Both the position numbers and the translations under genes were made by a program. A model generated the notes under the pieces. It was given only the letters and a program-made list of their open reading frames with translations. It did no database searches and was not told where the DNA came from. A stretch of DNA of 64,000 bases from Bacteroidales bacterium (GTDB taxonomy: Bacteria > Bacteroidota > Bacteroidia > Bacteroidales > UBA932), in NCBI GenBank assembly GCA_017428945.1, contig JAFRPW010000025.1, positions 35,324 through 99,323 on the forward strand. Direction: 5' to 3'. Below, piece by piece: positions 13,297 to 38,472 of the stretch (position 1 is its first letter; every line of letters starts with the position of its first letter).

Positions 13297-13397
13297 CATC
13301 GGAAATGAAATCGCATTTCTATACTTTTTCTGTCCCGGGCTACAAACTGTAACCCCGGCGGCGGAGCCGTTTTCCAGATTTCTGATATTATAACATA

Positions 13398-14096: not shown

Positions 14097-14098
14097 AT

Positions 14099-15241: not shown

Positions 15242-15295
15242 ATCACAGAGTTGTTTCGCTTCTCTATAGAACGGACATACTGACTATATCAAGTA

Positions 15296-15333: not shown

Positions 15334-15367
15334 CTACTGATTGTTAACGGAGAGGTTTTTTTACGAG

Positions 15368-16903
15368 ATGAGCGAGAACAGGCAACTGGCCAGAAACGTT
15401 TTTTTTAACTGCGGCACTTTTTTTATAAACTTGTGCCTGTCCTTCTTCCTGTCTCCATATCTGATACGGACGGTGGGAAAGGAAGCTTATGGGTTTTACC
15501 CGCTCATCAGCAATATAATCGGTTATTCCAGCATAATCTCTTCTGCTATCGGGTCTATGGCAGGCCGTTTCATTACAATGTCCTATTACAAGAGGGATTA
15601 CAAAGAGGCCCAATCTTATTTTAACTCTGTCTTCTTTTCCAATATCGTCCTTTCTGCTTTCTTCGCAGTCCTGACGCTGGTTGGCATTTTTATCCTTCCC
15701 AGGATTCTTCAAATCCCGGATTATCTGCTTTCCGACGTAAAATGGATGTTTGGGTTGTCAGGTTTTGCGATGATCATAGGGCTGTGTTTTGGGATTATGG
15801 GCATAGGGACATATTTAAAGAACCGTATAGATTTGTCATCGATGACTGACCTGGGTTCACATATTGTGAGCGCCCTTGTCATTATCTTGCTGTTTGCCTT
15901 TTTCAATCCAACAGTAGCTTATGTATCAGTAGCCGCCTTGAGTGCAGCCGTCTTTACCATGGTTGTTAATTTCCATTGGAAGCGGCGGTTCTTACCAGAG
16001 TTTTCAGTACGGCCTTTTTCAGATCACAGCCTCCCCAAGATAAAACAACTGATTACTTCTGGAATCTGGAATTCTGTCAATCAGCTCAGCAACGTACTAC
16101 TTACACAATTGGACTTGCTCATAAGCAATATCTTCATCAGCGCAAGCGTAACCGGTGATTATGCACTCGTTAAAATAATCCCCAACTTCATGTATTCGTT
16201 TCTTGCAGTCCTCTCTGGGTCTTTTACTGCATCTTTCAATATACTCTATGCAAAGGGAGAACTTGAGAAGTTGACTCAGGAACTTCAGAAAGCAATTAAG
16301 ATAGTAGGTTACATTGCGTGTCTTCCTCTTGGGTTCATACTGGTATTTGCTAAAGATTTTTTCAGTCTGTGGGTTCCTTCGGCGGACGCCGGATTCCTTG
16401 CAGGGTTGTCATTTCTGACCATTCTTCCTATGATTTTTGGCGCCAGTATCAATCCGGTTTTCGGAGTGTTCACTATCACAAATAAACTAAGGGTCCCTTC
16501 ATTAGTTCTTCTTGGAGCTGGAATCCTGAATACTACTGCCATTTTTATTCTGCTTAAGACCACGTCTTTGGGTATTTGGGCAATAGTAATAGTCGGTGCC
16601 ATTCAACACGCTTTGAGGAATTTCTTCTTTAGCCCTACGTACGCAGCACACTGTCTCAAATTGAAATGGTACACGTTCTACGCCAATATATTAAGATGCT
16701 GTATAGGGCTTGGTATTACCGCCGGCGTCGGTCTTCTTGTAAAACAGATTCTATCCGGTGATTCCTGGGCACTTTTGATTGCTGAAGGGATTCTTGTTGT
16801 GATGATTTCCGGGGCAGCCAATTTATTTATCGTTCTGAAACGTTCTGACAGGGAATACCTGGTCAGTTGGATAAAGAGCCATCTCGCATACGATGAAAAT
16901 TAA
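15368..16903 (+). CDS. Wzx-type polysaccharide flippase
   Basis: A 511-residue integral membrane protein with about 12-14 hydrophobic helices, starting RNVFFNCGTFFINLCLSFFLSPYLIRTVG, which is typical of the MATE/polysaccharide-transporter superfamily. It would flip the undecaprenyl-linked repeat unit from the cytoplasmic to the periplasmic face. The ATG at 15368 is preferred to an upstream TTG at 15341. It is the first gene of the plus-strand locus and overlaps the radical SAM gene by 11 nt. A Wzy-like polymerase, Wza and Wzc in the same operon make this a Wzx/Wzy-dependent pathway. Confidence 0.85.
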   Translation: MSENRQLARNVFFNCGTFFINLCLSFFLSPYLIRTVGKEAYGFYPLISNIIGYSSIISSAIGSMAGRFITMSYYKRDYKEAQSYFNSVFFSNIVLSAFFAVLTLVGIFILPRILQIPDYLLSDVKWMFGLSGFAMIIGLCFGIMGIGTYLKNRIDLSSMTDLGSHIVSALVIILLFAFFNPTVAYVSVAALSAAVFTMVVNFHWKRRFLPEFSVRPFSDHSLPKIKQLITSGIWNSVNQLSNVLLTQLDLLISNIFISASVTGDYALVKIIPNFMYSFLAVLSGSFTASFNILYAKGELEKLTQELQKAIKIVGYIACLPLGFILVFAKDFFSLWVPSADAGFLAGLSFLTILPMIFGASINPVFGVFTITNKLRVPSLVLLGAGILNTTAIFILLKTTSLGIWAIVIVGAIQHALRNFFFSPTYAAHCLKLKWYTFYANILRCCIGLGITAGVGLLVKQILSGDSWALLIAEGILVVMISGAANLFIVLKRSDREYLVSWIKSHLAYDEN

Positions 16904-17987: not shown

Positions 17988-18946
17988 ATCGCTTCAAAGT
18001 TATCATAGATTCAACACTCGCGCCACTCATCGACCGGGATTATGTCTTCCTGGACCTTCCGTACCATGGCAACGCGGGTGATTCATTCATCTATGCCGGG
18101 GTTATGGATTTTTTGTCTGCTACGGGTCACAAATGCCTTTACAAGTGTTCTGAAAACACATTTGATGGACGGGCTATCGGCCAAGACACGATGATTGTGT
18201 TTAATGGCGGAGGAAATTTTGGCGATATGTGGCCGGACTGTACCGAGTTTCGAAACAGGATTATTTCCAGGTATCCAGACAACAAGTATATCGTTTTCCC
18301 TCAAAGCGTTTACTATAGTGATAGGGCAAACCTTGAAAGAGACATGTCTCTATATTCCAAATGCAAGGATATGACAATATGCGCTCGTGATGATGAGTCT
18401 TTTTCGTTCCTTTCTCAGCATTTTACATGCAATAGGATTCTGAGGGTGCCGGATATGGTGTTTCATATTCCTGATAATATGTTGTTTAATGGTAACAAAT
18501 CTGCTGGAAAGAGTTTGTTTATCAAGCGTAATGATCGTGAGACTGTGAGCAGGCTGTTCTTGGACAATGTTCCTCACGACGCCGAAATTAAGGATTGGCC
18601 AACAATAGATTGCAAGAAGGGATGGCCATATGTCATATGGAGATATTTCCGGAAGTTGGTTGGCCTTTTTGACCGTATGGGACTGAACAAGATGGCGTTG
18701 CACATGTCCGATTTCTATTGGCAGAAAGTGATTATTCCCTATAATATCCGTACAGGATTCAAGCTTATTGGAGCATATGACACGGTATACACAACCAGGC
18801 TCCATGCTGCACTTGCCGGTGTTCTTCTTGGAAAAAACGTAGTTGCTTTTGACAATGTATACGGCAAGCTTTCTTCTTATGTGAATACTTGGATGAAAGA
18901 CAGCCCGTCAATTAGGGTTTTTCAAAATAATCAGGCCGGACTGTGA
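17984..18946 (+). CDS. Polysaccharide pyruvyl transferase family protein
   Basis: A 320-residue protein of the PS_pyruv_trans family. Typical motifs are PYHGNAGDSFIYAG near the N-terminus, FNGGGNFGDMWP, FPQSVYY and the C-terminal TTRLHAALAGVLLGK. Members transfer pyruvate from phosphoenolpyruvate to form a ketal on a sugar, giving a negative charge; some act on other substrates. The ATG at 17984 overlaps the previous stop as ATGA; a longer frame upstream has no supporting homology. In a locus that also adds phosphorylcholine, a pyruvyl group would make the glycan zwitterionic (inference). Confidence 0.82.
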   Translation: MNRFKVIIDSTLAPLIDRDYVFLDLPYHGNAGDSFIYAGVMDFLSATGHKCLYKCSENTFDGRAIGQDTMIVFNGGGNFGDMWPDCTEFRNRIISRYPDNKYIVFPQSVYYSDRANLERDMSLYSKCKDMTICARDDESFSFLSQHFTCNRILRVPDMVFHIPDNMLFNGNKSAGKSLFIKRNDRETVSRLFLDNVPHDAEIKDWPTIDCKKGWPYVIWRYFRKLVGLFDRMGLNKMALHMSDFYWQKVIIPYNIRTGFKLIGAYDTVYTTRLHAALAGVLLGKNVVAFDNVYGKLSSYVNTWMKDSPSIRVFQNNQAGL

Positions 18947-20665: not shown

Positions 20666-21610
20666 ATGCCTTTTATCTCTTTCGTCCTTCCTGCCTGGAA
20701 AAGCCTCCACCTCAGGGAGGCCGTTGCAAGTATCATTGCACAAACGTGTTCTGATTGGGAACTGGTGGTGGTGGATGACTGTTCTCCCGAGCCCCTGGAT
20801 GTAATAATAAACTCCTTTGAAGACTCCAGAATCAGGTATTATAGGAATTCTGAGAATCTGGGCGGCAAGAATCTTGTCAAGCAATGGAACCACTCAATTT
20901 CATATGCAAAAGGTGAGTTTATAGTTCTTGCAGCTGATGATGATGTATATCGGCCTTCTTTTTGTGAACAAGTGACGCGACTGTCCGGAAAGTATCCCCA
21001 AGTGGACGTCATACATTCTTCCGTAGAACAGATTGACGAAGACGGCAACCATTTATGGGACGACAGTATTCTGCCCGAGTTTACCAACAAGTATGAGTAT
21101 CTTAACTGGTGGCTCACTGGGCGTTCTTTTACTTGTATAGGTAATTTTGCATTCAGGCGCACGGCGCTTAAAGAACTTGGTGGTTTTATTGACTTCCCCT
21201 GTGCATTTGGGTCTGATATTGCCACACCAATCTCTCTCTCCAGGAATGGCGTTGCCAACACCCCTGAAATGCTTTTCTGTTTCAGACAGTCCCGAAACCA
21301 CCTTTCCGCTGACTCGTCCCGCTTTAAAGAAAAACTGGAGGCCGTTTCTCTTCTTTATGAGTTTCTGCTTTCCCTCCACTACGAAGTTCCTGATAGTCCA
21401 CAGGACAGATTATTTTATTCAATAGTGAATAAGGATTATCTTCACAAGAAATGCATATATGATTATTACAACCTTGTAATCAAACACCTTCCCCAAGAGC
21501 GGCTGTTCTCCTATATTAGGCTTTGCCGCCTGGCTTCATATAAGGATAAGTTCATTATGGTTCTGCGCTGGATAAAGAACAGGTTTGAGCAAACATTGTT
21601 ATACGCATGA
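20666..21610 (+). CDS. Family 2 glycosyltransferase
   Basis: A 314-residue GT-A enzyme beginning PFISFVLPAWKSLHLREAVASI, with VVVDDCSPEP and a metal-binding LAADDDVYRP motif. The start is placed at the ATG at 20666; an upstream TTG at 20642 overlapping the previous gene is possible but gives no extra domain. It ends in a basic region likely to contact the membrane. It overlaps the licD-like gene by 4 nt (ATGA). Acceptor and donor are unknown. Confidence 0.85.
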   Translation: MPFISFVLPAWKSLHLREAVASIIAQTCSDWELVVVDDCSPEPLDVIINSFEDSRIRYYRNSENLGGKNLVKQWNHSISYAKGEFIVLAADDDVYRPSFCEQVTRLSGKYPQVDVIHSSVEQIDEDGNHLWDDSILPEFTNKYEYLNWWLTGRSFTCIGNFAFRRTALKELGGFIDFPCAFGSDIATPISLSRNGVANTPEMLFCFRQSRNHLSADSSRFKEKLEAVSLLYEFLLSLHYEVPDSPQDRLFYSIVNKDYLHKKCIYDYYNLVIKHLPQERLFSYIRLCRLASYKDKFIMVLRWIKNRFEQTLLYA

Positions 21611-22392
21611 AACAACTCACGCCGCCGGAAATAAAGGAATCTTTACTGTCAATACTGAATTCTGTCACACTTTTTTGTCAGAAGAACAATATTCAGTATT
21701 ATCTGGCATGGGGTACACTAATAGGCGCAGTTAGACACAAGGGTTTTATTCCGTGGGACGACGACATAGATATCTGGATGCCTCGTTCAGATTATAATCG
21801 TTTCATCGAGCTGTATGACAATCAAATCTTCCACTTCCGGTCTATGCAGACCGAAGAAGACTTTCCGTTGTGTTTTGGAAAAGTTTGTGATGAACGGTTC
21901 AGCGCCATAGACGAGTACGACAAAGACTTTGGTTTGTATGTTGACATATTCCCGTTGGACGGGTTACCAACAGATTTGACCGATGCCAAAAAGCATATCA
22001 ATAGAATCCGCCGGCAAGAAGTGCTTTGGAGCAGCCAGGTATTAACACGAAGGATGCCCATATCTATCAAGCTGCCCGCAAAAAAGATTCTGAAAATTAT
22101 TGGAGCCAGGCTGATTCATCCTTTTGTATCTGTTAAGAAAATACGTGAAAAACTTACTCTCTTATGCGAGAAATACAAATGGGAAGATTCAGTTAACATC
22201 ATAGATTATTCCGTAAATTGTGTTTTCAATAAGGGCATGTTCGTTCCGTCAGATGAAAGAGTATTTGAAGGATATACTTATTTTGTACCTGGAGATTACG
22301 ATTCAATCCTTCGGATGTACTACGGAAACTATATGGAAATCCCTCCCGAGAGCGAGCGCATTAATCACGGGATAAAAGCTTATCTTAAATGA
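21607..22392 (+). CDS. licD: LicD-family phosphorylcholine transferase
   Basis: A 261-residue protein of the LicD family, nucleotidyltransferase-fold enzymes that move phosphorylcholine (or another phospho group) from CDP-choline to a glycan. The signature WGTLIGAVRHKGFIPWDDDIDIWM is present, with the metal-binding acidic cluster at D51-D53 and D55. A second block, DIFPLDGLP, is also typical. It is followed with ATGA overlaps by a LicC-like cytidylyltransferase gene, then a LicA-like kinase gene and a choline-type transporter gene. That context makes phosphorylcholine the likely group transferred. The acceptor sugar is unknown. Confidence 0.88.
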   Translation: MKQLTPPEIKESLLSILNSVTLFCQKNNIQYYLAWGTLIGAVRHKGFIPWDDDIDIWMPRSDYNRFIELYDNQIFHFRSMQTEEDFPLCFGKVCDERFSAIDEYDKDFGLYVDIFPLDGLPTDLTDAKKHINRIRRQEVLWSSQVLTRRMPISIKLPAKKILKIIGARLIHPFVSVKKIREKLTLLCEKYKWEDSVNIIDYSVNCVFNKGMFVPSDERVFEGYTYFVPGDYDSILRMYYGNYMEIPPESERINHGIKAYLK

Positions 22393-23252
22393 ACGCAATT
22401 ATCTTGGCGGCGGGGATTGCCTCTCGTTTCGTTCCTCTTTCTTATGAGAAGCCAAAGGGGCTTTTTGAAGTAAGGGGAGAAAGGCTGATAGAACGGCAAA
22501 TCAGACAACTTTTACAAGCCGGTGTTTCAGATATTACACTGGTTCTTGGCTATAAAGCGGAATTGTTTCAATATCTGAGAGAGAAATATGGTGTCAAAAC
22601 CGTTTTAAACGAGGACTATCGTCGTTATAATAATATTTCTTCCCTAGTAAAGGTTATTGATTGTTTAGACAATACTTTCATTTGTTGTTCTGATCATTAT
22701 TTTAACAGAAATGTGTTTCTGGAACAGCCCGGACACAGTTATTATGCTGCATTATTCGCAAATGGTGAGACTAATGAGTACTGTTTGACCACAAACGAGA
22801 ATGATCAGATTGTTGAGGTCGGGGTTGGAGGTGCGAATTGCTGGTATATGGCGGGGCACGCCTTTTTTTCACACGATTTTTCTGTAGTATTCAAGCGCTT
22901 CCTTGAACATGACTATAAGAATGAGTCTATGAGGCACTTCTATTGGGAGGATGTATTTGTTCGTCATCTGAAATATTTGCCCATGAGTATCATGCGATGC
23001 TGTGATGATGACATCAGAGAATTTGACACATTCGATGAACTGCGTTGTTTTGACTCGTCATATTTAATGGATAGCCAGTCTTCAATTATAAAAGACATTT
23101 GCATGCAAATGGGATGCAATGAATGGGAGCTGACGGGATTTCAAGTCATTCCAGAAATAAAAGAGTCCTTTATGTTCTGCAAATCCGGAATGAAGTATGG
23201 CTTCAACATAAAAACAAGGGTTATTCACGATATGTCAACCGAAGCCCGATGA
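22389..23252 (+). CDS. licC: LicC-like phosphocholine cytidylyltransferase
   Basis: A 287-residue protein with an N-terminal nucleotidyltransferase domain: AIILAAGIASRF (nucleotide-binding loop), EKPKGLFEVRGERLIERQI and a metal-binding aspartate in CCSDHYF near residue 98. This arrangement is that of LicC and other sugar-1-phosphate nucleotidyltransferases. LicC makes CDP-choline from CTP and phosphocholine. The C-terminal 60 residues extend past the core and have no recognised motif. The gene overlaps licD by 4 nt and precedes the kinase gene by 3 nt. The choline specificity is inferred from neighbours; another alcohol phosphate such as phosphoethanolamine is possible. Confidence 0.82.
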   Translation: MNAIILAAGIASRFVPLSYEKPKGLFEVRGERLIERQIRQLLQAGVSDITLVLGYKAELFQYLREKYGVKTVLNEDYRRYNNISSLVKVIDCLDNTFICCSDHYFNRNVFLEQPGHSYYAALFANGETNEYCLTTNENDQIVEVGVGGANCWYMAGHAFFSHDFSVVFKRFLEHDYKNESMRHFYWEDVFVRHLKYLPMSIMRCCDDDIREFDTFDELRCFDSSYLMDSQSSIIKDICMQMGCNEWELTGFQVIPEIKESFMFCKSGMKYGFNIKTRVIHDMSTEAR

Positions 23253-23255
23253 GGT

Positions 23256-24146
23256 ATGGAGACTAGTGATAATATAATTGTATTGAGAGGTCTGCTGTCC
23301 GAGTTGTTACCTGAGAAAGATGCGCTGTCTGCAGAGATTGCCCCGATAGGAGGAATGAGCAATTGTAATTACCTCATAAGCTTTCCTGATTCCAGTTTTG
23401 TTCTTCGCGTTCCGGGAAAAGGCAGTGAAGGAATGATTTTTCGGGATAACGAGAGGTATAACTCCATTATCGCATACCAACTGGGCTTGTGCCCGGAGGT
23501 TCGTTTATTGGATCCCGATACAGGTATAAAGATTACAGATTATATCAAAGATTCTGAGTCTTTGTCCGCGGATACAATTCAGGACTCTGAGAATCGTGGC
23601 AAAGTGGCCAGTGTTCTTCGTCATCTTCATTACTCATCAAAGCAACTTAAGAACGAATTCAATATATTTGGAGAGATTGACCATTATCAAAGCCTGTTGG
23701 ATAAAACACATGCCGTTATGTATCCCGGGTGGGAAGGTTTCAAGTCAAAAGTAATGGATATAAAGACTCGCCTGGACAGAATAGGAGTATCTATAGTACC
23801 CTGCCACAATGACCCCGTCCCTGAGAATTTCTTAAAAAACCATAACGGAAGTGTATTCCTTATCGATTGGGAGTACAGTGGAATGAACGATCCAGTTGCC
23901 GATATAGCCGCATTGTTTTTAGAAAGCAATTTTTCCTCTGATAACCGCTACTTGTTTCTTACGGAATACTATTCAGAAGATAGTATTCCTTTATGGATAA
24001 ATGAAAAGATTCTTTCTTATCAGATTCTTTGGGACTGTTTATGGGCACAATGGACTGTAATTAAAGAATCAAATGGATATGATTTCGGCCGTTACGGCAG
24101 AGACAGGTTTGAACGCGCTGTTTATAATTTAACGCAGTTGTCTTAA
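23256..24146 (+). CDS. licA: LicA-like choline kinase
   Basis: A 296-residue kinase of the aminoglycoside/choline kinase fold. A glycine-rich N-lobe motif (IGGMSNCNYLI) precedes the catalytic loop CHNDPVPENFL (H184, D186, N191) and the metal-binding IDWEYSGMNDPVADIA. The catalytic loop and the W-E-Y-S/A-G pattern are shared with LicA and choline/ethanolamine kinases. It would phosphorylate imported choline, giving phosphocholine for the LicC-like enzyme. The gene lies 3 nt after licC and 16 nt before the BCCT transporter gene. Ethanolamine as substrate cannot be excluded. Confidence 0.84.
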   Translation: METSDNIIVLRGLLSELLPEKDALSAEIAPIGGMSNCNYLISFPDSSFVLRVPGKGSEGMIFRDNERYNSIIAYQLGLCPEVRLLDPDTGIKITDYIKDSESLSADTIQDSENRGKVASVLRHLHYSSKQLKNEFNIFGEIDHYQSLLDKTHAVMYPGWEGFKSKVMDIKTRLDRIGVSIVPCHNDPVPENFLKNHNGSVFLIDWEYSGMNDPVADIAALFLESNFSSDNRYLFLTEYYSEDSIPLWINEKILSYQILWDCLWAQWTVIKESNGYDFGRYGRDRFERAVYNLTQLS

Positions 24147-24162
24147 CACGTTATATCCAGCC

Positions 24163-25680
24163 ATGACAAATCGGTTAACACATCGTATTGATTGGGTAAA
24201 AACAATTATCCCATTTGTAGGAGTATTAGCTCTCTTTTTTGTATTCCTTTTATTTCCCTACAGCTCACAAACTGCTCTTGAACGAATCAGGCATTATATC
24301 GGTGACGACTGCGGATTGTATTTTGCCGTTTTAGGACTATGCGTATTTCTATTGTCAGTTTGGACGGCGTTTTCAAAATATGGGAAGATCCGTTTGGGAA
24401 ATACGGACAAACCACAGTACAACAGCTTTATTTGGGGTGCCATGATTTTTACATCAGCACTTGCTGCTGATATTGTTTTTTATTCGCTATGCGAGTGGTC
24501 TTTGTATGCTTCCAACGAATACGTGGAGACATTAGGAGAGGCGGAATTATGGATACCAACTATGCCACTGTTCCACTGGGGACCCATCGCGTGGTGCTTC
24601 CATATCGTGCTGGCTATATGCTTTGGTTTTATGATGCATGTCCGGCAGAGGAATAGACAGTGCTTTTCAGAAGCTTGTCGGCCTTTACTCGGGACATATC
24701 TTGACAGAGGGTGGGGACGCTTAATAGATATCGTTTCATTTATAGCAATGCTGGCCGGAATAGCAACTACCTTTTCTCTGGCCACCCCACTATTATCCTC
24801 CTCTATCTGCAGATTGTTCGGGATTGACAGTAATATATATTTGACAGTTTCAATCCTAATAGTAGTCGCAGTTATATATACAAGTGCAGTGTTGTTTGGG
24901 ATGAAAGGTATTTCCAGATTAGCAAAGTGGTGTACATATTCTTTTGCTGCACTGTTGTTGTATGTTCTGTTACTGGGAGGAGAGACCCGTTTTATTCTTG
25001 AGACCGGCTTTCAGAGTATTGGGAATCTGATTCAGCATTTCTTTGGGCTTGCCACCTATATGGACCCCCTTCGCGAGAATTCGTTTCCTCAAAACTGGAC
25101 TCTGTTTTATTGGGCATATTGGATAGCCTGGACAATTGGGACGCCTTTTTTCATCGCGTTAATCAGTAAAGGGAGAACAATCAAAGAAACCATACTGGGC
25201 GGTTACGGATGGGCTCTCGCCGGCACTTTCTCATCTTTTATCATTCTTGGTAATTATGGTGTTGCCCAGCAATTAAAACATGGGGTCGATATAATAGGCT
25301 TTATTGATCAAGGAGGGTCGTATTCCGATGCAATACTTCAAATAATCCAGACTCTTCCAGCCCCACAGCTTGTCCTCATTGTTCTGGTTATAACGATGGT
25401 CTTGTTTTATTCTACGTCGTTTGACACTTTGTCTTTAATCGCTTCATCATATTCCTACAAATCCCTGTCGGCCAGCGAGGTTCCGGATAAAAGGATAAGA
25501 GTGCTCTGGGCTTTAGTCTTTATTCTTCTTCCCATTGGTCTTTTGTTTTCTGACAGTTCAATGTATGGGTTACAATCTGTCAGCATAATTGCAGCTTTCC
25601 CGGTAGGTATTATTATTATACTAATCATCATTTCTTTTTTCAAGGATGCCCGTCTCTACCTTAATGAAAAGAAGATTTAA
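24163..25680 (+). CDS. BCCT-family choline/betaine-type transporter
   Basis: A 505-residue membrane protein with about 12 helices. The family signature is clear: NWTLFYWAYWIAWTIGTPFF followed by IALISKGRTIKE. BCCT carriers take up choline, betaine or carnitine with Na+ or H+. It is the fourth member of the licD-licC-licA set, placed where Haemophilus uses the unrelated carrier LicB, so choline supply for phosphorylcholine synthesis is the best reading (inference). At 505 residues it lacks the long regulatory C-terminal tail of osmoregulatory BCCT proteins such as BetP, consistent with a nutritional role. Its 3' end overlaps the next gene. Confidence 0.88.
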   Translation: MTNRLTHRIDWVKTIIPFVGVLALFFVFLLFPYSSQTALERIRHYIGDDCGLYFAVLGLCVFLLSVWTAFSKYGKIRLGNTDKPQYNSFIWGAMIFTSALAADIVFYSLCEWSLYASNEYVETLGEAELWIPTMPLFHWGPIAWCFHIVLAICFGFMMHVRQRNRQCFSEACRPLLGTYLDRGWGRLIDIVSFIAMLAGIATTFSLATPLLSSSICRLFGIDSNIYLTVSILIVVAVIYTSAVLFGMKGISRLAKWCTYSFAALLLYVLLLGGETRFILETGFQSIGNLIQHFFGLATYMDPLRENSFPQNWTLFYWAYWIAWTIGTPFFIALISKGRTIKETILGGYGWALAGTFSSFIILGNYGVAQQLKHGVDIIGFIDQGGSYSDAILQIIQTLPAPQLVLIVLVITMVLFYSTSFDTLSLIASSYSYKSLSASEVPDKRIRVLWALVFILLPIGLLFSDSSMYGLQSVSIIAAFPVGIIIILIIISFFKDARLYLNEKKI

Positions 25681-26500
25681 GCAGAGCGCTGTCTGGCGGT
25701 TATTACGCGAGTGCAAAGTGTTGGCGGAACACCGAAGAGTGGCTGGGATATGCCGTGACTTGATTGACGAGTATAGTGCCCAGCCGTGTAATTATGCGAT
25801 CAGGCCCAAAGTTGATTTGGGAACAGATATGATTATCTGGCAGTATTGGTCACAAGGCTTTAATCAAGTTCCATCTATAGTCCGGAAATGCTTGGAGTCT
25901 GTTGAAAAGAATATTGGGGATTACAAGATTATACGTCTTTCAGATGATAACATAACGGACTATCTGGATATCCCTTCTTTTGTCTTGCAGAAACGTACAG
26001 CTTTCAATGTCGCAATGTTCTCTGATATACTCCGTCTCATGCTTTTGAAAGCATATGGTGGAGTATGGCTGGATGCTACAGTGTTTCTTTCAAAACCTAT
26101 CCCGTCAGAGTATTATCATAATGATGTGTTTTTTTATCGCCGAGATCCCAAAGAGCCGGATTACAAGTATTGGAGGAACACATATGCCTATTATTTTGGG
26201 TGGACAAAAGGTTTCAGGGTAAATATGCTGAACAGTATCCTATTTGCCAAAAAGGACAATCCCTACATATCCTATTTGTGCAATGTCATGCTATTCTGGT
26301 GGCAACATCACAATACAATACCATATTATTTCTTTTTTCAGATACTTTGTGACGTATATGGGTACCCTCTGGAAATGCCACTTGTAAGTGATACTCTTCC
26401 ACATTACCTTCAGCAGGCCATGAATGATTCGCACTTCAAAATAATGTCCCGCGATGATATTCTGGATAATATTCCTATTCATAAACTGACATACAAATAA
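25664..26500 (+). CDS. Capsular polysaccharide synthesis glycosyltransferase (Caps_synth type)
   Basis: A protein of 278 residues from the ATG at 25664, or 284 from the ATG at 25646; both overlap the transporter gene. It matches the Caps_synth/GT32-like group: IIWQYWSQGFNQVPSIVRKCLESV, YKIIRLSDDNITDYLDIP and the DxD-like block FSDILRLMLLKAYGGVWLDATVF. Such enzymes transfer a hexose to a lipid-linked glycan on the cytoplasmic side. It lies directly after the choline module and before an acetyltransferase gene. The sugar added is unknown. Confidence 0.82.
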   Translation: MKRRFKQSAVWRLLRECKVLAEHRRVAGICRDLIDEYSAQPCNYAIRPKVDLGTDMIIWQYWSQGFNQVPSIVRKCLESVEKNIGDYKIIRLSDDNITDYLDIPSFVLQKRTAFNVAMFSDILRLMLLKAYGGVWLDATVFLSKPIPSEYYHNDVFFYRRDPKEPDYKYWRNTYAYYFGWTKGFRVNMLNSILFAKKDNPYISYLCNVMLFWWQHHNTIPYYFFFQILCDVYGYPLEMPLVSDTLPHYLQQAMNDSHFKIMSRDDILDNIPIHKLTYK

Positions 26501-29827: not shown

Positions 29828-30779
29828 CGTCATCATGCCGGTTTACAATGCCCAGAATACCCTGGAGAGAACACTCCGGAGTATTTCCAGCCAGTTGTCC
29901 CGGGATGTAGAGCTTGTCATCGTCGATGATGGCAGTACGGATAGTACCCCGGATATTTTATCTCGTTTTGCCGACGAGAATCCCGCGGCATGTCAAGTAA
30001 TCCGTCAGGAGAATGCGGGAGCTGCCGCTGCCAGAAATGCGGCTATCAACAATGCCAGTGGTGATTACCTGGCGTTCATAGATGCCGACGACAGGGTCCC
30101 AGACAACGCTCTTGAGCGCATTCTTAAAGCAACGGAGAACAATTCTGACATAATAGGATGGGACTGGCAGAATGAGTGTAACGGACAGGTAAGGAGATTC
30201 AGGCAGGCGGAGTATTCCACGCCGGAAGACGCGATTAAGAACCTTATGGGTGGTACCATGAAGTGGAATCTCTGGCTGTTTACTGTAAAGCACAGTCTTG
30301 TGAATCAGAACAGCATCCGTTTTCTTGAGGGTGCAGACATGGGCGAAGATATGGCTTTCATGCTTAAGTGCTTTGCATGTTCCAAAACGGTCAAGCAAGT
30401 TCATGATGTTCTGTATGAATACAATGCATCCAATCCCACTTCCATAAGCAGGCAACTCTCAGAGAGACGTCGGACAGAAGTTTCAGCAAACCTTCAGTCG
30501 GCCCATGAATTTTTGAAGAATTCTGCACATTCTGAATTATGCGACTCCTATCTTCCTCATCTCAAGTTATATATTAAGCTTCCGCTTTTGATAAGCGCCT
30601 GCAAGGAAGATTACAGAACTTGGTTTAATTGGTTTCCAGAGGCAAATTCATTTGCATTCAATAACAAAGAATTACCGCTCCGTACCCGTGCCCTCCAATG
30701 GATGGCATCCAAAAGAATGTGGGGTGCGGTCCGTCTTTATGCTGCCTTGTATAGTTTTATCACAAAACACATGGTTTGA
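29817..30779 (+). CDS. Family 2 glycosyltransferase
   Basis: A 320-residue GT-A enzyme beginning RLSVIMPVYNAQNTLERTLRSI, with VIVDDGSTDSTPDIL and a metal-binding AFIDADDRVPDNALE motif. An ED pair in GADMGEDMAFMLKC fits the usual catalytic region. The ATG at 29817 is preferred to a GTG two codons upstream. It shares a base with the start of the polymerase gene (TGATG). It adds one sugar of the repeat unit; specificity is unknown. Confidence 0.87.
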   Translation: MRLSVIMPVYNAQNTLERTLRSISSQLSRDVELVIVDDGSTDSTPDILSRFADENPAACQVIRQENAGAAAARNAAINNASGDYLAFIDADDRVPDNALERILKATENNSDIIGWDWQNECNGQVRRFRQAEYSTPEDAIKNLMGGTMKWNLWLFTVKHSLVNQNSIRFLEGADMGEDMAFMLKCFACSKTVKQVHDVLYEYNASNPTSISRQLSERRRTEVSANLQSAHEFLKNSAHSELCDSYLPHLKLYIKLPLLISACKEDYRTWFNWFPEANSFAFNNKELPLRTRALQWMASKRMWGAVRLYAALYSFITKHMV

Positions 30780-32050
30780 TGCTAAAAAGAATCTTCATAT
30801 CGGCATTACTCGTAGTAATAACCAGTTTCTATTTGTTCCCGGTAGCCTTCTACTTCCTGCCAGACGCAATCAATACAAAGATTATCATTGCAGGTTTCGG
30901 AGTTCTGGCCTTCTTTTATGATGGGGTTTCTTCCAGATCGTTTATTATTCCAAGGCAATTGCTTTATGCTGGATTATTAGCCGTATTTTTCTCTTTGTGG
31001 TGTTTTTATTGTATCACCAAGAACAATACCGACGATTTGTCCTATGCCAATTATTGGATATCATTCTTTACCTGGATATTTGGCGGTTACGGAGTCTGTT
31101 TTCTTCTCAGGAATATGGCGGGAAAGGCAGATCTGGCAACTATTACTTTTTATTTTGCATTAGTTTGTGTCTCCCAATGCATTATTGCTGAATGGATTGA
31201 CTATTCCCCGTCCTTCAGGGTGCTGGTCGACAGCGTATTTAACCAGGGTCAAGAGTTCTTTCAGGAGGTAAAGCGACTCTACGGCATTGGTGCGGCTTTG
31301 GATCCGGCCGGTGTACGTTTCTCTGTTACGCTCACCCTTATGGCGCATCAGATGTCTTCAAACGGAGAAGTTATTAACAAGACCGGTTTGTCCTTATTCT
31401 ACTTCAGCGCTTTTTTTATCATAGTTATAATCGGGTCCATGATTGCCAGAACTACCTGGTTGGGCGCTGGTATCGGCTTGGCCTATATGATTGTTTCTTA
31501 CCTTAGTCTGAATAATGGTTATCTTTCGGGGAAGCAGGTGCAATTCTGGTCACTATTCATAGGCCTGGCACTGCTCACTCTTATCGTTTCGGTCATCTTG
31601 TATAATACCAATCCCAATTTCAGAAGCAGTCTCCGATTTGCCTTTGAGGGTTTTTTCAACTGGGCAGAAACGGGTGTTTTCAGAACCGACTCCACTGACA
31701 AACTCAATAACGTTATGTGGATATGGCCGCAGGACACCAGATCCTGGATTATTGGAACAGGATTGTTTGAGAACTTTGTCTATAGTACTGATATCGGGTA
31801 CTGCCGCTTTACTCTTTATTGCGGTATCCCGGGGCTGGCAATCTTTTCCGTATTCTTCATATATAATGGCTGGGCCCTGTTCAGAAGGTTTAAGAGTCTC
31901 TCCATTTTGCCTCTGGCTCTTGTAGTAGTGAATTTTATTGTATGGCTTAAAGTTGCAACTGATATTTTTTTTATATTTGCTTTATTGTTTTTTGCAGAAG
32001 AAAGCGTACAGGACACTTCTGAACCCACATGCACATCCTCTACAACATAG
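30779..32050 (+). CDS. Wzy-like polysaccharide polymerase
   Basis: A 423-residue membrane protein with about 11-12 helices and a larger extracytoplasmic loop in the second half (residues about 300-350, FNWAETGVFRTDSTDKLNNV ... DTRSWIIGTG). This topology and the 'G-T-G-x-F' segment are usual in Wzy polymerases and O-antigen ligase relatives. These are highly variable, so the call rests on topology and on being the only such protein in a locus that has Wzx, Wza and Wzc. It would join repeat units in the periplasm. Its 3' end overlaps the next gene by 22 nt. Confidence 0.78.
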   Translation: MLKRIFISALLVVITSFYLFPVAFYFLPDAINTKIIIAGFGVLAFFYDGVSSRSFIIPRQLLYAGLLAVFFSLWCFYCITKNNTDDLSYANYWISFFTWIFGGYGVCFLLRNMAGKADLATITFYFALVCVSQCIIAEWIDYSPSFRVLVDSVFNQGQEFFQEVKRLYGIGAALDPAGVRFSVTLTLMAHQMSSNGEVINKTGLSLFYFSAFFIIVIIGSMIARTTWLGAGIGLAYMIVSYLSLNNGYLSGKQVQFWSLFIGLALLTLIVSVILYNTNPNFRSSLRFAFEGFFNWAETGVFRTDSTDKLNNVMWIWPQDTRSWIIGTGLFENFVYSTDIGYCRFTLYCGIPGLAIFSVFFIYNGWALFRRFKSLSILPLALVVVNFIVWLKVATDIFFIFALLFFAEESVQDTSEPTCTSSTT

Positions 32051-34217: not shown

Positions 34218-35350
34218 TGAGAATACTTCAGTTAGGTAAATTCTACCCCATACGCGGGGGCGTAGAGAAGGTGATGTGGATTCTCATGAGGGGTCTATCG
34301 GGCCAGGGCGTAGACTGTGACATGCTGTGCGCACGGCTTCGCGGTGACAAGGCAGATCCTGCGGACCAGCCGTTCCAGGATGGCAGGGACTTCCGCTTCA
34401 ACTCCCATGGGACGGTGTACTGCGTTAATGCTCTCACCCAAAAGGCCGCCACCATGATTTCTCCGGCAATGGTACGATGGCTTAGGAAACACCACCAGGA
34501 TTACGACATAATACACGTGCACCATCCGGACCCCATGGCAGCCCTGGCGCTCAGGCTCAGCGGCTACAAAGGGAAAGTGGTGCTTCACTGGCACAGTGAC
34601 ATAGTGTCCCAGAAATCACTCCTGAGGCTTTACAGACCTCTCCAGGACTGGCTTTTGAAACGGGCCGATGTCATTGTGGGTACCACCCCGTCGTATATCA
34701 AGGCTTCCCCTTATTTGGGAGACTTCCAGGACAAATGCACGTATGTTCCCATAGGCATAGAGCCCATTCATTTCAGCGAGGAGGGGGCGGAGGCAATAAG
34801 GCAGCGCTTCCCCGGGAAGACCATCCTGCTGTCCATAGGCCGGCTGGTCCCTTACAAAGGTTTCTCCGTGCTTATCAGGGCAATGAAGTTCCTTCCGGAA
34901 AAGTACCACCTCATTATTGGCGGCAAGGGCCCTCTGCAGAAGGAACTGGAGGACATGATTGACGCGGAAGGCCTTGGCGGCAGGGTTACTCTGGAGGGGT
35001 ATCTGCCGGACGACAAACTGCCGGACTACTACGGCGCCTGCCACATCTTTGTCCTTTCCAGCATTATGAAGACAGAAGCCTTTGGGATAGTACAGATAGA
35101 GGCCATGTCCTGCGGAAAACCCGTTGTGGCCACCATAATTCCCGGCTCAGGCGTGTCCTGGGTGAACGAGGACGGCATTTCCGGAAGGAATGTCACGGTA
35201 GGTGACTCCAAGGCCATGGCCGCAGCAATAGAAAACGTGGATGAACGTTACAACGTATTCTCCCATGGTGCCAAGATGCGTTTTGACTCCATGTTCACGG
35301 AAGACGGAATGATTAAATCAATACTTAAAATATATGAAACGCTTGTTTGA
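34217..35350 (+). CDS. Family 4 glycosyltransferase
   Basis: A 377-residue GT-B enzyme of a familiar GT4 type: MRILQLGKFYPIRGGVEKVMWIL, IIHVHHPDPMAALAL, HWHSDIVSQKSLLRLYRPLQ, LLSIGRLVPYKGFSVLIRAM, IIGGKGPLQKELE and EAFGIVQIEAMSCGKPVVAT. This set is shared with mannosyl- and rhamnosyl-type transferases in capsule clusters. Its 3' end overlaps the export lipoprotein gene by 17 nt, tying glycan assembly to export genes in one transcript. Confidence 0.9.
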   Translation: MRILQLGKFYPIRGGVEKVMWILMRGLSGQGVDCDMLCARLRGDKADPADQPFQDGRDFRFNSHGTVYCVNALTQKAATMISPAMVRWLRKHHQDYDIIHVHHPDPMAALALRLSGYKGKVVLHWHSDIVSQKSLLRLYRPLQDWLLKRADVIVGTTPSYIKASPYLGDFQDKCTYVPIGIEPIHFSEEGAEAIRQRFPGKTILLSIGRLVPYKGFSVLIRAMKFLPEKYHLIIGGKGPLQKELEDMIDAEGLGGRVTLEGYLPDDKLPDYYGACHIFVLSSIMKTEAFGIVQIEAMSCGKPVVATIIPGSGVSWVNEDGISGRNVTVGDSKAMAAAIENVDERYNVFSHGAKMRFDSMFTEDGMIKSILKIYETLV

Positions 35351-36083
35351 TATTATCCTTCTGGGGGTAGTGTCTTTCATGCTCTTTTCCTGCTCTACGG
35401 CAAAAGACATGACCTATCTCCTGGACATGCAGTACAACACAGAGTATCCTGCAAGTCCTGCTCCGGAACTCATTGTGCAGCCGGACGATGTGCTCAGCAT
35501 CACCGTCACCTGCTCCACTCCGGAGCTTGCCGCACCTTTCAACCTGTTCTCCGAGGGAACAACCGGGCTCAAGTATCCTGTGGACCGTGAGGGAAACATA
35601 GAGTTCCCCGTGCTTGGCACCATAAAGGTATGGGGCGCCACCCTGTCCCAGATAAAGAACGGCATTGCTGCCGGCATCAGGGAAAACGGTTTTATCAAGG
35701 ACCCCATAGTTCAGGTTTCCCTGGACAACTTTGCCATTACGGTGATTGGCAGCGGCGGCAATAAGGTTATCCCTATTGCCAACAACAGCATCAATCTCCT
35801 GCAGGTAATAGCAATGTCCGGACAATTGACCAATAGTTCTAATATCAAGGATATCATGATTATCCGCACAGAGAACGGAGTACGCCAGTCCTACACGGTG
35901 GACCTTCAGTCCAAGGACCTGTTCTACAGCCCGGTTTTCTACCTCAAGCAGAATGATGTGGTTTACGTTAAACCTAAGGGAACAAACCTCAGCACAAGCG
36001 GAGAGACCGTTATGTCTTTTGTAACAGCCGGACTATCCCTTGTATCTATTATTGTCAATGCAATTCTTTGGACCAGCAGATAA
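35334..36083 (+). CDS. Wza-type polysaccharide export lipoprotein
   Basis: A 249-residue lipoprotein with its lipobox at residues 17-20 (LFSC) followed by STAKDMTYL. A Poly_export domain (LIVQPDDVLSITV, YPVDREGNIEFPVLGTIKVWG) and a SLBB-like segment follow. It ends in a hydrophobic helix (residues about 225-245, VMSFVTAGLSLVSIIVNAILW), as in Wza-type outer-membrane translocons. It forms the exit channel for the polymer together with the next-encoded kinase. It lies directly upstream of the Wzc-like gene, the standard pairing. Confidence 0.9.
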   Translation: MKRLFDIILLGVVSFMLFSCSTAKDMTYLLDMQYNTEYPASPAPELIVQPDDVLSITVTCSTPELAAPFNLFSEGTTGLKYPVDREGNIEFPVLGTIKVWGATLSQIKNGIAAGIRENGFIKDPIVQVSLDNFAITVIGSGGNKVIPIANNSINLLQVIAMSGQLTNSSNIKDIMIIRTENGVRQSYTVDLQSKDLFYSPVFYLKQNDVVYVKPKGTNLSTSGETVMSFVTAGLSLVSIIVNAILWTSR

Positions 36084-36087
36084 GAAT

Positions 36088-38472
36088 ATGAACGAAAAAA
36101 AGAGCAATAATGGTGTCAACTTGGTTGACCTATTCTTCTACCTCCTGAGCAATTGGTATTGGTTTGTTCTTTGTGCTGTCTTATGCGTAGGTTTTGCATA
36201 CTACCGCTACTCCAAAACTTCGCATATGTACCAGAGCCAGGCGACCATTATCATTAAGGACCCCTCAAACACAAAGTCAACTGTCCAATTAGGCTCCTAC
36301 AGCAGCCTCATCAATCATGTGAGTATGTCTAACGAAATACTCCAGCTCCAGTCCCGGGAATTGATGATGAGCGTGGTGAGGTCATTAGATGCCGATATTG
36401 ACTATGTGGTAATGGATCACCTTCGTGAAATGGAACTGTATAAGGCAACGCCGGTGAGAATGATTGTTCCCAGAAACGTCTCCGAAGACTATGCATTTGA
36501 CATCCGTATAACTCCAGTCAGCGACAGCACGTTGAGGGTTACTGGCAAAGATATGCCCGGTACAATGTACCATTTTGGAGACACCTTATCTGTTTACGGG
36601 CACAGTGTTTCCTTTAGTCCTACTGCCAATTACAATACATATATCGGCAAAGACATAAGAGTCAGAAAAACTCCCACTGCTTCCCGGGCAGTTCAGTTCA
36701 TTTCCCGCATCCGCGTAAACCAAGCCGAATCCGATGGCTCTATTCTTCGTCTAAGCATTACAGACTTTGCCCATGACCGCGCAGATGATATATTGAACAC
36801 TCTGGTGCGAAAGTATAATGAGGATGCAATCCGCGAAAAGAATCGTATTGCAGTAAATACTGCTGCATTCATAAATGAGCGCCTTGCCATTATCCAGGAC
36901 GAACTAGGATCTGTTGAGGCAGACCTTTCGCGCCTGAAAACAAGCGAGCGAATCCTGAATGTGGAGAGCACCGCGGCAGACTACCTGAACCAGAACACTG
37001 CCCTGAACAAAGAAATAGTAGAACTGGAGACAAAACTCAGCACGGCCCGCTATCTCAGGGATTATGTCCAGTCTTCTTTCCAAGCCTATGAAACTATTCC
37101 AGCCAACATTGTTACTCAGGACAGCTACATCGAAGGAGCAATTCAGAAATACAATGCTGCAATCCGCGAACGCGAACGTCTGGTAAAGAGCGGCGGTGAA
37201 TACAGCCTTGCTGTAAGTCAGGTAGAAGATAATATAAAGGTCCTTAGGACCGATGTCAATGACTTCATAGATACCCACATTTCTCTCCTCATTACACAGC
37301 GCCAAAGCCTGGCGGAAAGGGAGCAGGAATCTCTTCAGAGGTTCACTGCCATGCCGGCCAAGGCCAGGGAATTCCTTTCCATCGAGCGTCAGCAAAAGAT
37401 TAAGGAATCCCTGTACATGTTCCTCCTGAACAAGCGCGAGGAGAACTCCCTCACCCAGGCCATGGCTGACAACAACGCCCGCATGATAGACTCGGCAACT
37501 TCCAGCTGGACACCGGTAGCTCCGTCAAGGAACAAAATGCTCCTGCTGGCATTTCTGGTAGGTCTGCTCATCCCCGGAGTCATCCTTATCATGAGGATAA
37601 TGCTTGACACCAACATTCATTCCCGCAAAGACATCGAGGAAGGCACGGGAATGCCGTTCCTTGCAGACATTCCCTTTGCCCGTGAGAAGAAGCGCGAGAA
37701 GGATGACACCACCCTTAAATCGGCCTACAAGAATGCCAAATCAAGGGTGTTCACGGAGGCAATGCGCCTTATGTGCACCAACCTTGACTATATGAGGCCG
37801 GAAGGCTGTACGGTCCCGGTAATTGCCACAACGTCCTTCTCCGCCTCTGCAGGTAAGACCTTCCTCACCACCAACATGGCTGCCTGCCTGGCCGATGCCA
37901 AAAAGCGCGTTGTGCTGATTGATATGGACCTCCGCAAGAGGACGGCCTCCAAGTACTTCTCCCTCAAGCACGGCACGCTGGGCCTTTCCAACTTCATCTT
38001 TGACGATTCCCTCAAACTGGAGGACATCCTGCACAAGGACGTCTTGGAGGGCTTCGACTTCATCCCCGCCGGACACATTCCGCCAAACCCCGCAGAGCTC
38101 CTTGGCCGCGCCCGCTTTGACACCCTCATCAAGGCCCTCAAGGAAAAGTACGACTTCATCCTCCTTGACGGCGTCCCGGTGAACGCAGTGGCGGATATGA
38201 TTGTAATTCAGAGGCTTGTGGACATGAACCTGTTCATCCTGCGAAGCGGCAAGGTTGACCGCCGTGCGCTTCCGGAGCTTGAGACCGTGTACCAGAGCGG
38301 CCGCCTCAAGAACCCCAGCATTATCCTTAATGGCGGCGACATCCGCACCTCTTATGGTTATGGATACGGCTACGGTTACGGTTACGGCTATGGATACGGC
38401 TACGGTTATGGCTATGGTTACGGCTATGGATATGGCTACGGATACGGTGAAAAAGAAGAGGACGACAAATGA
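36088..38472 (+). CDS. Wzc-type polysaccharide co-polymerase and BY-kinase
   Basis: A 794-residue inner-membrane tyrosine autokinase. The first membrane helix is near residues 22-42. A Wzz domain with a long periplasmic coiled coil follows, then the second helix at about 484-503 (LLLAFLVGLLIPGVILIM). The cytoplasmic BY-kinase domain has Walker A (SFSASAGKTFLT, about 583-594), Walker A' (VVLIDMDLRKR, about 607) and Walker B (FILLDGVP, about 689). The tail is sixteen Tyr-Gly pairs (residues 756-787) followed by EKEEDDK. The tail tyrosines are the expected autophosphorylation sites that control oligomer state and chain length. The start is the ATG at 36088; a longer frame upstream lies inside the wza-like gene. 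Confidence 0.92.
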   Translation: MNEKKSNNGVNLVDLFFYLLSNWYWFVLCAVLCVGFAYYRYSKTSHMYQSQATIIIKDPSNTKSTVQLGSYSSLINHVSMSNEILQLQSRELMMSVVRSLDADIDYVVMDHLREMELYKATPVRMIVPRNVSEDYAFDIRITPVSDSTLRVTGKDMPGTMYHFGDTLSVYGHSVSFSPTANYNTYIGKDIRVRKTPTASRAVQFISRIRVNQAESDGSILRLSITDFAHDRADDILNTLVRKYNEDAIREKNRIAVNTAAFINERLAIIQDELGSVEADLSRLKTSERILNVESTAADYLNQNTALNKEIVELETKLSTARYLRDYVQSSFQAYETIPANIVTQDSYIEGAIQKYNAAIRERERLVKSGGEYSLAVSQVEDNIKVLRTDVNDFIDTHISLLITQRQSLAEREQESLQRFTAMPAKAREFLSIERQQKIKESLYMFLLNKREENSLTQAMADNNARMIDSATSSWTPVAPSRNKMLLLAFLVGLLIPGVILIMRIMLDTNIHSRKDIEEGTGMPFLADIPFAREKKREKDDTTLKSAYKNAKSRVFTEAMRLMCTNLDYMRPEGCTVPVIATTSFSASAGKTFLTTNMAACLADAKKRVVLIDMDLRKRTASKYFSLKHGTLGLSNFIFDDSLKLEDILHKDVLEGFDFIPAGHIPPNPAELLGRARFDTLIKALKEKYDFILLDGVPVNAVADMIVIQRLVDMNLFILRSGKVDRRALPELETVYQSGRLKNPSIILNGGDIRTSYGYGYGYGYGYGYGYGYGYGYGYGYGYGYGYGEKEEDDK
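38353..38448 (+). repeat. Sixteen tandem TAYGGN hexamers encoding (Tyr-Gly)16
   Basis: Ninety-six bases encode sixteen Tyr-Gly dipeptides at the C-terminus of the Wzc-like kinase. Tyr codons alternate irregularly between TAT and TAC and Gly codons among GGT, GGC and GGA. The array has therefore diverged at silent sites while the dipeptide stayed intact, which points to selection on the protein. Length change by slippage in 6-bp steps would keep the frame. Confidence 0.9.

What the first reader, a model, noticed from the sequence alone, without database searches (positions are those of the whole stretch)
21607..25680. Complete phosphorylcholine module (LicD-LicC-LicA plus BCCT carrier) inside a Bacteroidales polysaccharide locus
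Four adjacent plus-strand genes encode a LicD transferase (DDDID cluster at residues 51-55), a LicC-like cytidylyltransferase, a LicA-like choline kinase (CHNDPVPENFL, IDWEYSG) and a BCCT transporter with the GRT signature. The first two are joined by an ATGA overlap, the next gap is 3 nt and the last 16 nt. In Haemophilus lic1 the carrier is the unrelated LicB; here a BCCT protein takes its place. The flanking genes are glycosyltransferases, so the glycan probably carries phosphorylcholine, an immune-active group that mimics host lipids. With the pyruvyltransferase the product may be zwitterionic.
Basis: partly seen in the sequence, partly recalled or inferred. Interest (0 to 1): 0.78.

Follow-up and report, generated by a model that had tools for sequence, protein, structure and literature searches.

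The report
Phosphorylcholine module with BCCT choline importer
A gut-type bacterium carries, inside genes for its surface sugar coat, four linked genes that most likely take up choline and attach it as phosphorylcholine to that coat, using an importer unlike the one in the well-known versions of this pathway.

Summary
Four co-directional genes (LicD, LicC, LicA, BCCT) lie at 21607-25680, with ATGA, 3-nt and 16-nt junctions, inside a Wzx/Wzy-type polysaccharide locus. The kinase keeps all eight choline-contact positions of pneumococcal LicA, Thr29 as the active Ser. The cytidylyltransferase is closest to pneumococcal LicC, though two substrate-site residues differ. The BCCT protein has the aspartate that makes BetP choline-specific and that E. 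coli BetT has; 22 of 22 unlinked Bacteroidales BCCTs examined have glycine. A lic-1-like phosphorylcholine module with a BCCT importer in LicB's place is thus well supported, but untested at the bench. It is rare in the order (1 of 393 sampled genomes) yet not unique: lic-linked BCCTs occur in 5 of 200 genus genomes and in four Clostridia genomes, one with a 72% identical copy. It looks like a mobile gut-anaerobe cassette. Unexpectedly, LicC ends in a shrunken kinase N-lobe, the mark of a former LicC-LicA fusion; two congeners keep the fusion. Verdict: new variant of a known kind, moderate interest.

The parts
21607..22392 (+). LicD-family phosphotransferase, proposed choline-phosphate transferase to the glycan
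   Evidence: PF04991 1.2e-44; best NCBIfam NF045866 Mf1 diacylglycerol cholinephosphotransferase 97.6 bits, below its cutoff of 225
22389..23252 (+). LicC-type cytidylyltransferase (about residues 1-225) with vestigial kinase N-lobe tail (about residues 226-287)
   Evidence: 1jyk 1.6e-31; alignment of the tail to fused kinases; AlphaFold model pLDDT 91.5, top PDB fold 1jyk
23064..23249 (+). Region of licC coding for the kinase N-lobe remnant (about residues 226-287)
   Evidence: modelled as helix 232-241 and strands 248-253, 260-265, 268-273, 278-281
23256..24146 (+). LicA choline kinase
   Evidence: PF01633 2.2e-23; 4r77 LicA 2.5e-64; 8 of 8 choline-contact positions kept, T29 as Ser (residues from PMC4364537 passages)
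24163..25680 (+). BCCT transporter, proposed choline importer
   Evidence: PF02028 5.3e-114; Asp at the BetP-G153/DddT-G101 position; sole BCCT match in the genome
20642..21610 (+). Glycosyltransferase family 2 gene, overlaps licD by ATGA
   Evidence: PF00535 1.4e-22; coordinates
25646..26500 (+). Capsular polysaccharide synthesis protein, overlaps the end of the BCCT gene
   Evidence: PF05704 3.6e-57; coordinates
15341..16903 (+). Wzx-type flippase
   Evidence: PF01943 2.9e-8
17990..18946 (+). Polysaccharide pyruvyl transferase
   Evidence: PF04230 3e-26
30776..32050 (+). Candidate Wzy polymerase (hydrophobic, no Pfam match)
   Evidence: 0 families; inference from position and hydrophobicity
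35334..36083 (+). Wza-type polysaccharide export protein
   Evidence: PF02563 4.5e-18
36040..38472 (+). Wzz/Wzc-type chain-length and tyrosine kinase protein
   Evidence: PF02706, PF13807, PF13614

Best explanation
This is a phosphorylcholine-decoration module of the lic-1 kind, built into a Wzx/Wzy-type surface polysaccharide operon. The BCCT protein imports choline; LicA phosphorylates it with ATP; LicC activates phosphocholine with CTP to CDP-choline; LicD transfers the choline-phosphate group to a sugar of the repeat unit, probably before Wzx flips it. The module belongs to a family of lic cassettes of gut anaerobes (Clostridia and one Bacteroidales genus) in which a choline-type BCCT stands in for LicB. 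Gene identities, order and residue signatures are shown here; substrate, transfer step and final glycan structure are inferred.
For: LicA: closest solved relative is pneumococcal LicA, and 8 of 8 choline-contact positions are kept (residues from PMC4364537, passages). LicC: 1jyk 113 bits against 37.5 for the next hit, PntC; structural top hit 1jyk, TM 0.92 on the target. BCCT: Asp at the BetP G153 position in the window, in E. coli BetT and in 13 of 13 sequences of its clade; Gly in 19 of 19 BCCT sequences from other genomes of the order and in 3 of 3 unlinked ones of the genus; BetP G153D is called a choline-specific version (PMC6400524, passage). Linkage recurs: in draws of 200 genus genomes a lic-type BCCT occurs in 5 of 11 LicC-positive and 0 of 189 other genomes (taking both draws as the same 200), each time beside licC/licA. 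The LicC proteins beside the BCCTs of G580, G881 and G903 have both aspartates of pneumococcal LicC. A Lachnospiraceae-MAG contig holds a LicD fragment, a LicA fusion, BCCT (72%) and LicC together. LicD overlaps both the upstream glycosyltransferase and LicC by ATGA.
Against: The window LicC has Cys and Glu where pneumococcal LicC has D105 and D192 (residue offset of 20 inferred by me); PntC, which prefers 2-aminoethylphosphonate, has Glu at both (PMC6697681, section 8). The closest solved BCCT is DddT, a DMSP carrier, although its natural form has Gly, not Asp, at that position; DddT Tyr112, needed for DMSP transport, is Leu here. In congeners G477 and G483 the LicCA-BCCT cassette has no adjacent LicD, and the G477 neighbours are housekeeping genes; G580 has no LicD match. 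So the cassette may also feed other acceptors. A LicD-family protein is not by itself proof of choline.
Confidence: 0.82

Rival explanations
1. The module makes CDP-choline, but mainly for a membrane lipid (phosphatidylcholine or a related lipid) rather than a glycan, as in Treponema denticola, where a LicCA fusion feeds a cholinephosphotransferase.
For: The congener cassette in G477 lies among housekeeping genes, and those of G477 and G483 have no adjacent LicD; G580 has no LicD match; the T. denticola precedent is described in PMC8590670 (passage); the best NCBIfam model of the window LicD is the lipid-acting Mf1, below cut-off.
Against: LicD overlaps a glycosyltransferase and LicC inside a polysaccharide operon. 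G000 has 2 CDP-alcohol phosphotransferase matches, as have G540 and G580 (G483 has 1, G477 0), so no extra lipid transferase is evident, though one of the two could still do it.
Confidence: 0.08
2. The head group is not choline but a related amine (ethanolamine, a methylated ethanolamine) or aminoethylphosphonate.
For: LicC has Glu at the D192 position, as PntC has, and Cys at D105. The Clostridia and archaeal LicCA fusions with the same pattern have kinases that miss some choline-site residues (L021, L030, L046), so the pattern may go with another amine in them.
Against: All eight choline-site positions are kept in the window LicA, and also in the kinases of G477, G483 and G540, whose LicC parts have the same Cys/Glu pair. 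The choline-type Asp is in the BCCT, and LicC proteins next to three other members of this BCCT clade have the classical Asp/Asp pair. No phosphonate gene was seen among the locus genes that I ran against Pfam.
Confidence: 0.07
3. The BCCT is an osmolyte (betaine) carrier that lies next to the lic genes by chance.
For: BCCTs commonly carry betaine (recalled); 18 of the 392 other genomes of the order sample carry a BCCT match, and three clade members in Clostridia had no lic gene adjacent (G902, G905, G885).
Against: The 19 BCCTs of those 18 genomes are 26-30% identical, have Gly at the specificity position and form a separate group. The lic-type BCCT is beside licC/licA in 5 of 5 genus genomes that have it and again in Clostridia.
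Confidence: 0.05
4. The contig is a misassembly or contamination, so that the module does not belong to this Bacteroidales genome.
For: GC 40-42% over the four genes against mostly 51-62% in the flanks; the genome is a draft with 2.79% contamination.
Against: The low-GC stretch covers the whole glycan operon (15-32 kb). The flanking gene at 39834-42131 matches congeners at 48-78% identity, and three congeners have related cassettes of 60-68% BCCT identity.
Confidence: 0.03

Closest known systems
lic-1 operon (licABCD) of Haemophilus influenzae, S. pneumoniae, Proteus mirabilis O18 and others
   Same: Choline kinase, CTP:phosphocholine cytidylyltransferase and LicD transferase encoded together, in P. 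mirabilis O18 also inside an O-antigen locus (PMC8027243 passages).
   Different: The carrier is a BCCT protein instead of LicB; order is LicD-LicC-LicA-BCCT; the host is Bacteroidales; LicC bears a kinase remnant; no tandem repeat was reported within the four genes, whereas Haemophilus licA is repeat phase-variable (recalled).
LicCA fusion proteins (Treponema denticola, Clostridia, Methanobacteriaceae)
   Same: Same two enzymes; congeners G477 and G483 of the window organism carry them fused.
   Different: In the window the enzymes are separate, and only a shrunken N-lobe remains on LicC.
BetT choline:H+ symporter (E. coli) and BetP G153D
   Same: Asp at the specificity position.
   Different: E. 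coli BetT falls in another part of the tree; the window protein is nearer to DddT (33%) than to CaiT (28%), has Tyr in place of DddT Trp320 in the cage, and is encoded in a lic operon instead of the bet operon.
PntC phosphonate cytidylyltransferase
   Same: Same superfamily and Glu at the position of LicC D192.
   Different: Much weaker match (37.5 against 113 bits); Cys, not Glu, at position 105; the adjacent gene is a choline kinase.

Membership tests
lic-1 phosphorylcholine pathway | LicA choline kinase with the choline pocket | tested here: met
   8 of 8 contact positions (T29 as Ser)
lic-1 phosphorylcholine pathway | LicC CTP:phosphocholine cytidylyltransferase | tested here: inconclusive
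   Family and fold met; substrate-site residues 105 and 192 differ
lic-1 phosphorylcholine pathway | LicD-family transferase in the same operon | tested here: met
   PF04991 1.2e-44, ATGA overlap
lic-1 phosphorylcholine pathway | LicB-type choline permease | tested here: not met
   The carrier gene of the module is BCCT PF02028; the rest of the genome was not searched for LicB. Hence filed as a variant that works like lic-1
lic-1 phosphorylcholine pathway | Phosphorylcholine present on a surface glycan | not testable with these tools
   needs cells or purified glycan
BCCT family | PF02028 match and aromatic cage | tested here: met
   5.3e-114; positions of DddT W140, W313, W320, W321, Y324 are W, W, Y, W, W in the window protein
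Choline-type BCCT | Asp at the BetP G153 position | tested here: met
PntC phosphonate cytidylyltransferase | Glu at both positions equivalent to 104 and 196 of Tde-PntC | tested here: not met
   Cys and Glu
LicCA fusion | Cytidylyltransferase and complete kinase in one chain | tested here: not met
   Two ORFs; LicC keeps only an N-lobe remnant

The most novel reading that the evidence does not exclude
A distinct, mobile lic type with a BCCT choline importer circulates between gut Clostridia and one Bacteroidales genus, and its LicC and LicA repeatedly fuse and split. In the window organism it makes a phosphorylcholine-bearing capsule or O-antigen, which would be the first in Bacteroidales as far as the papers seen here go.
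Probability: 0.6. Interest if true: 0.65.

Novelty: new variant of a known kind. Interest (0 to 1): 0.5.

Why it matters
Phosphorylcholine on bacterial surfaces is recognised by C-reactive protein and the platelet-activating-factor receptor (PMC4364537 passage; PMC10434233 introduction) and by natural antibodies (recalled). A survey of 26 ChoP-expressing species (PMC10434233; abstract, introduction with its Table 1 and one results section read) lists no Bacteroidales member in that table. If this module works as proposed, a gut-type Bacteroidales bacterium would carry this group and import outside choline for it through a transporter family that none of the paper listings seen here links to lic genes. 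It also gives a simple genome marker (choline-type BCCT next to licC/licA) for finding further cases.

Tried and rejected
Phase variation: no tandem array was reported within the four genes (window 11000-40000 scanned, 8 rows). Inverted repeats at 12900-15600 are four pairs, none clearly an invertible promoter. Promoter-like sites in 21300-26000 are at the chance number (12 found, 12.7 expected), and terminator-like sites likewise (5 against 3.9). No Rfam match at gathering score in the window.

AEP/PntC reading of LicC: not taken as the main reading because the same Cys/Glu pair occurs in the LicC parts of G477, G483 and G540, whose kinases keep all eight choline-site positions. In one search, 11 of 16 LicC-kinase fusions have Glu at 192 with Cys or Ser at 105, but this helps less than it seems, since the kinases of those checked outside the G477/G483/G540 group miss some choline-site residues. 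Without kinetics the question stays open.

Betaine-carrier reading of the BCCT: rejected on the Gly/Asp position and on gene linkage.

Literature searches on this question: phosphorylcholine, licD, BCCT; 51 papers held two terms, 20 listed, none of those listed held BCCT; phosphocholine, Bacteroidetes, licD, capsular polysaccharide; 20 of 21 listed; lic1, BetT, choline transporter, phosphorylcholine, licB; 6 of 6; phosphorylcholine, Bacteroides, gut commensal, TEPC-15; 15 of 23; phosphocholine cytidylyltransferase, choline kinase, Bacteroidetes, BCCT; 1 of 1; lic operon, LicCA, choline, transporter, phase variation; 5 of 5; LicC, choline kinase, BCCT, gut bacteria, LicD; 14 of 14, BCCT count 0 in each. 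No title or abstract start in these listings reports a BCCT in a lic locus or ChoP in Bacteroidales; I did not read most of these papers, and the library holds open-licence papers only. Searches were on DddT, LicCA/T. denticola and BetP G153D.

Limits of my counts: one search was given 33 of the 34 loci (L050, a 26-residue match, left out). G580's LicC was left out of the 'BCCT downstream' label because its open frame overlaps the BCCT frame; G878, G881 and G903 were fetched later and are not in that tree. In one search the six LicC rows beside BCCT (window, G477, G483, G540, L017, L018) form one group with support 92/82, below the tool's mark of 95/80, while the upstream LicCA fusions of L017 and L018, also labelled, lie elsewhere. 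In one search, 13 of the 19 order BCCT sequences were dropped to save time (all 19 are). One search aligned 24 rows, only part of the fetched LicC sequences. G580's BCCT matches only residues 7-294 and then runs into unrelated sequence, so it is truncated or misassembled. The 72% copy of G878 is on a 5.5-kb contig of a metagenome-assembled genome and could be misbinned.
Full report
What is there. The four genes are as described: LicD 21607-22392, LicC 22389-23252, LicA 23256-24146 and BCCT 24163-25680, all on the plus strand. The LicD/LicC junction is an ATGA overlap and the next gaps are 3 and 16 nt. LicD itself overlaps the stop of the upstream family-2 glycosyltransferase by another ATGA, and the Caps_synth ORF downstream begins inside the BCCT gene, so the module appears threaded into one operon. 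Around it lie a Wzx-type flippase, a radical SAM protein, a pyruvyl transferase, glycosyltransferases, a serine-acetyltransferase-like protein, an acyltransferase, a candidate Wzy, and Wza and Wzc/Wzz proteins, and an initiating sugar transferase on the other strand at 11782-13101. This is a Wzx/Wzy-type surface polysaccharide locus.

Host. The window is a 64-kb stretch of contig 16 of a 2.6-Mb draft genome (96.8% complete, 2.8% contamination). A flanking gene at 39834-42131 has matches at E <= 1e-60 in 15 of 26 genomes (own included), among them congeners at 48-78% identity, and a FimD-type fimbrial tip adhesin lies at 6728-9376. The four genes are 40-42% GC in a low-GC glycan island (15-32 kb, 40-49%) between flanks of mostly 51-62%.

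The kinase. Its closest solved relative is pneumococcal LicA (4r77, E 2.5e-64). The LicA structure paper (PMC4364537, passages) names Thr29, Asp176, Val178, Tyr197, Glu213, Trp251, Trp254 and Tyr268 as contacts of choline. All eight positions are kept in the window protein, Thr29 as Ser, and that paper reports that T29S keeps full activity. The same eight are kept in congeners G477, G483 and G540. The kinase of the second lic-like locus in the same genome differs at three of them (178, 213, 268), and three Clostridia or archaeal fusions checked (L021, L030, L046) also differ at 178, 213 and 268.

The cytidylyltransferase. Its best PDB match by sequence is pneumococcal LicC (113 bits); the second is PntC (37.5 bits). 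The AlphaFold model (pLDDT 91.5) has 1jyk as its top fold match. Against this, the residues equivalent to LicC D105 and D192 are Cys and Glu (I inferred a numbering offset of 20 from the printed chain). PntC has Glu at both and prefers aminoethylphosphonate (PMC6697681, passages and section 8). The same Cys/Glu pair is in the LicC parts of G477, G483 and G540, whose kinases keep the full choline site, and the LicC proteins beside the related BCCTs of G580, G881 and G903 have the classical Asp/Asp pair; that of G878 has Glu/Asp. I call the LicC substrate likely but not settled.

The tail of LicC. Residues from about 226 to 287 align with the start of the kinase domain in LicC-LicA fusions, including the helix and the first strands, but without the glycine-loop motif (GGM or GLTN) and without the rest of the kinase. 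The model folds it as a helix and a small sheet. The same kind of remnant is on the LicC proteins of G540, L017 and L018. G477 and G483 instead have LicC and LicA fused in one chain of about 526 residues. The simplest reading is that LicC came from a fusion, lost most of that kinase, and works with a separate LicA.

The transporter. The BCCT protein is the only BCCT match in the genome. Its nearest solved relative is DddT, a DMSP carrier (33%). At the position of DddT Gly101 and BetP Gly153 it has Asp. DddT G101D shows a significant loss of DMSP transport (PMC13270143, passages); the DddT chain in my alignments is that mutant, and the natural form has Gly. BetP G153D is described as a choline-specific version (PMC6400524, passage) and was solved with choline bound (PMC3578728, passage). 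E. coli BetT, a choline:H+ symporter, has Asp there. All 19 BCCT sequences from 18 other genomes of the order sample have Gly, as have the three BCCTs of the genus that are not next to lic genes; CaiT has Ala. All 13 sequences of the window protein's clade, three of them without adjacent lic genes, have Asp. Of five cage positions four are Trp and one (DddT Trp320) is Tyr; DddT Tyr112, on the entry path, is Leu here. Because the clade shares one ancestor, the 13 are not 13 independent events; the independent point is that E. coli BetT, far off in the tree, has the same Asp.

How widespread. A strong LicC match (E <= 1e-15) is found in 1 of 393 sampled genomes of the order and 1 of 295 of the class, in both only the window's own, but in 11 of 200 of the genus. 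A BCCT match is found in 8 of 200 of the genus: five (G000, G477, G483, G540, G580) have it beside licC/licA, and three are 27-28% identical and not among the LicC-positive genomes. The six other LicC-positive genomes have no BCCT. Of 32 genomes behind 33 of the 34 LicC relatives, nine have a BCCT match. It lies beside lic genes in the genomes of L017, L018, L021 (G881) and L043 (G903). The genome of L018 (a Lachnospiraceae MAG) has a second copy at 72% identity on a 5.5-kb contig with a LicD fragment, a LicA fusion and a LicC. Three further clade members (G902, G905, G885) had no adjacent lic gene in the stretch read. In the tree the lic-linked BCCTs fall into two groups: window, G477, G483, G540 and the 72% Lachnospiraceae copy (99/99); and those beside HTH-LicCA-LicC type genes (100/100). 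Each group mixes the window's genus with Clostridia, which points to horizontal transfer; direction is not shown, and misbinning of short MAG contigs cannot be excluded.

Mechanism and rivals. Choline import by BCCT, phosphorylation by LicA, activation by LicC and transfer by LicD onto the repeat unit is the best account (0.82). A lipid destination (0.08) is kept open by congener cassettes without adjacent LicD and by G580, which has no LicD match; against it stand the LicD overlaps here and no excess of CDP-alcohol phosphotransferases. Another head group (0.07), a chance neighbour (0.05) and a misassembly (0.03) are less likely; these odds are not mutually exclusive.

Novelty. lic-1 modules in O-antigen loci are known (P. 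mirabilis O18, PMC8027243 passages), and LicCA fusions are known (PMC8590670, passage). Seven paper searches (listed in Tried and rejected) showed no title or abstract start that reports a BCCT in a lic locus or phosphorylcholine in Bacteroidales; the library is incomplete and most listed papers were not read. I therefore file it as a new variant of a known kind. Because the LicB feature is not met, I say it works like lic-1 and do not call it a strict member.

Noticed in passing
L053 (G000 contig 35, 2000-21999), locus coordinates 7753-14623, minus strand: A second lic-like locus in the same genome: LicD, a divergent LicD, a LicC-LicA fusion, an amidohydrolase (PF07969), a 243-aa LicC with Glu at both PntC-type positions, and a 536-aa ORF ending in an octopine/nopaline dehydrogenase domain (PF02317). 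LicD, LicCA and the second LicC recur in G006 and G588. It may build an opine-like head group (idea, untested).
   Followed up: partly
L119 (G878 contig 18), 1378-2970: A choline kinase fused to an NTP-transferase-like domain that lacks the usual LAAG motif, followed by BCCT and a separate 222-aa LicC: perhaps another stage of fusion and decay.
   Followed up: partly
L088 (G580 contig 21), 1769-3334: A lic-linked BCCT whose match stops at residue 294 and continues into unrelated sequence; truncated gene or misassembly.
   Followed up: no
window 6728-9376 (-): FimD-type fimbrial tip adhesin (NF052322, above cut-off) close to the polysaccharide locus.
   Followed up: no
window 16893-17987 (+): Radical SAM protein between the flippase and the pyruvyl transferase; unusual company for a glycan operon.
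   Followed up: no
window 38352-38448: Tandem repeat (6/12/18/24-nt units, TTACGG type) near the end of the Wzc-like gene, probably a tyrosine- and glycine-rich tail.
   Followed up: no
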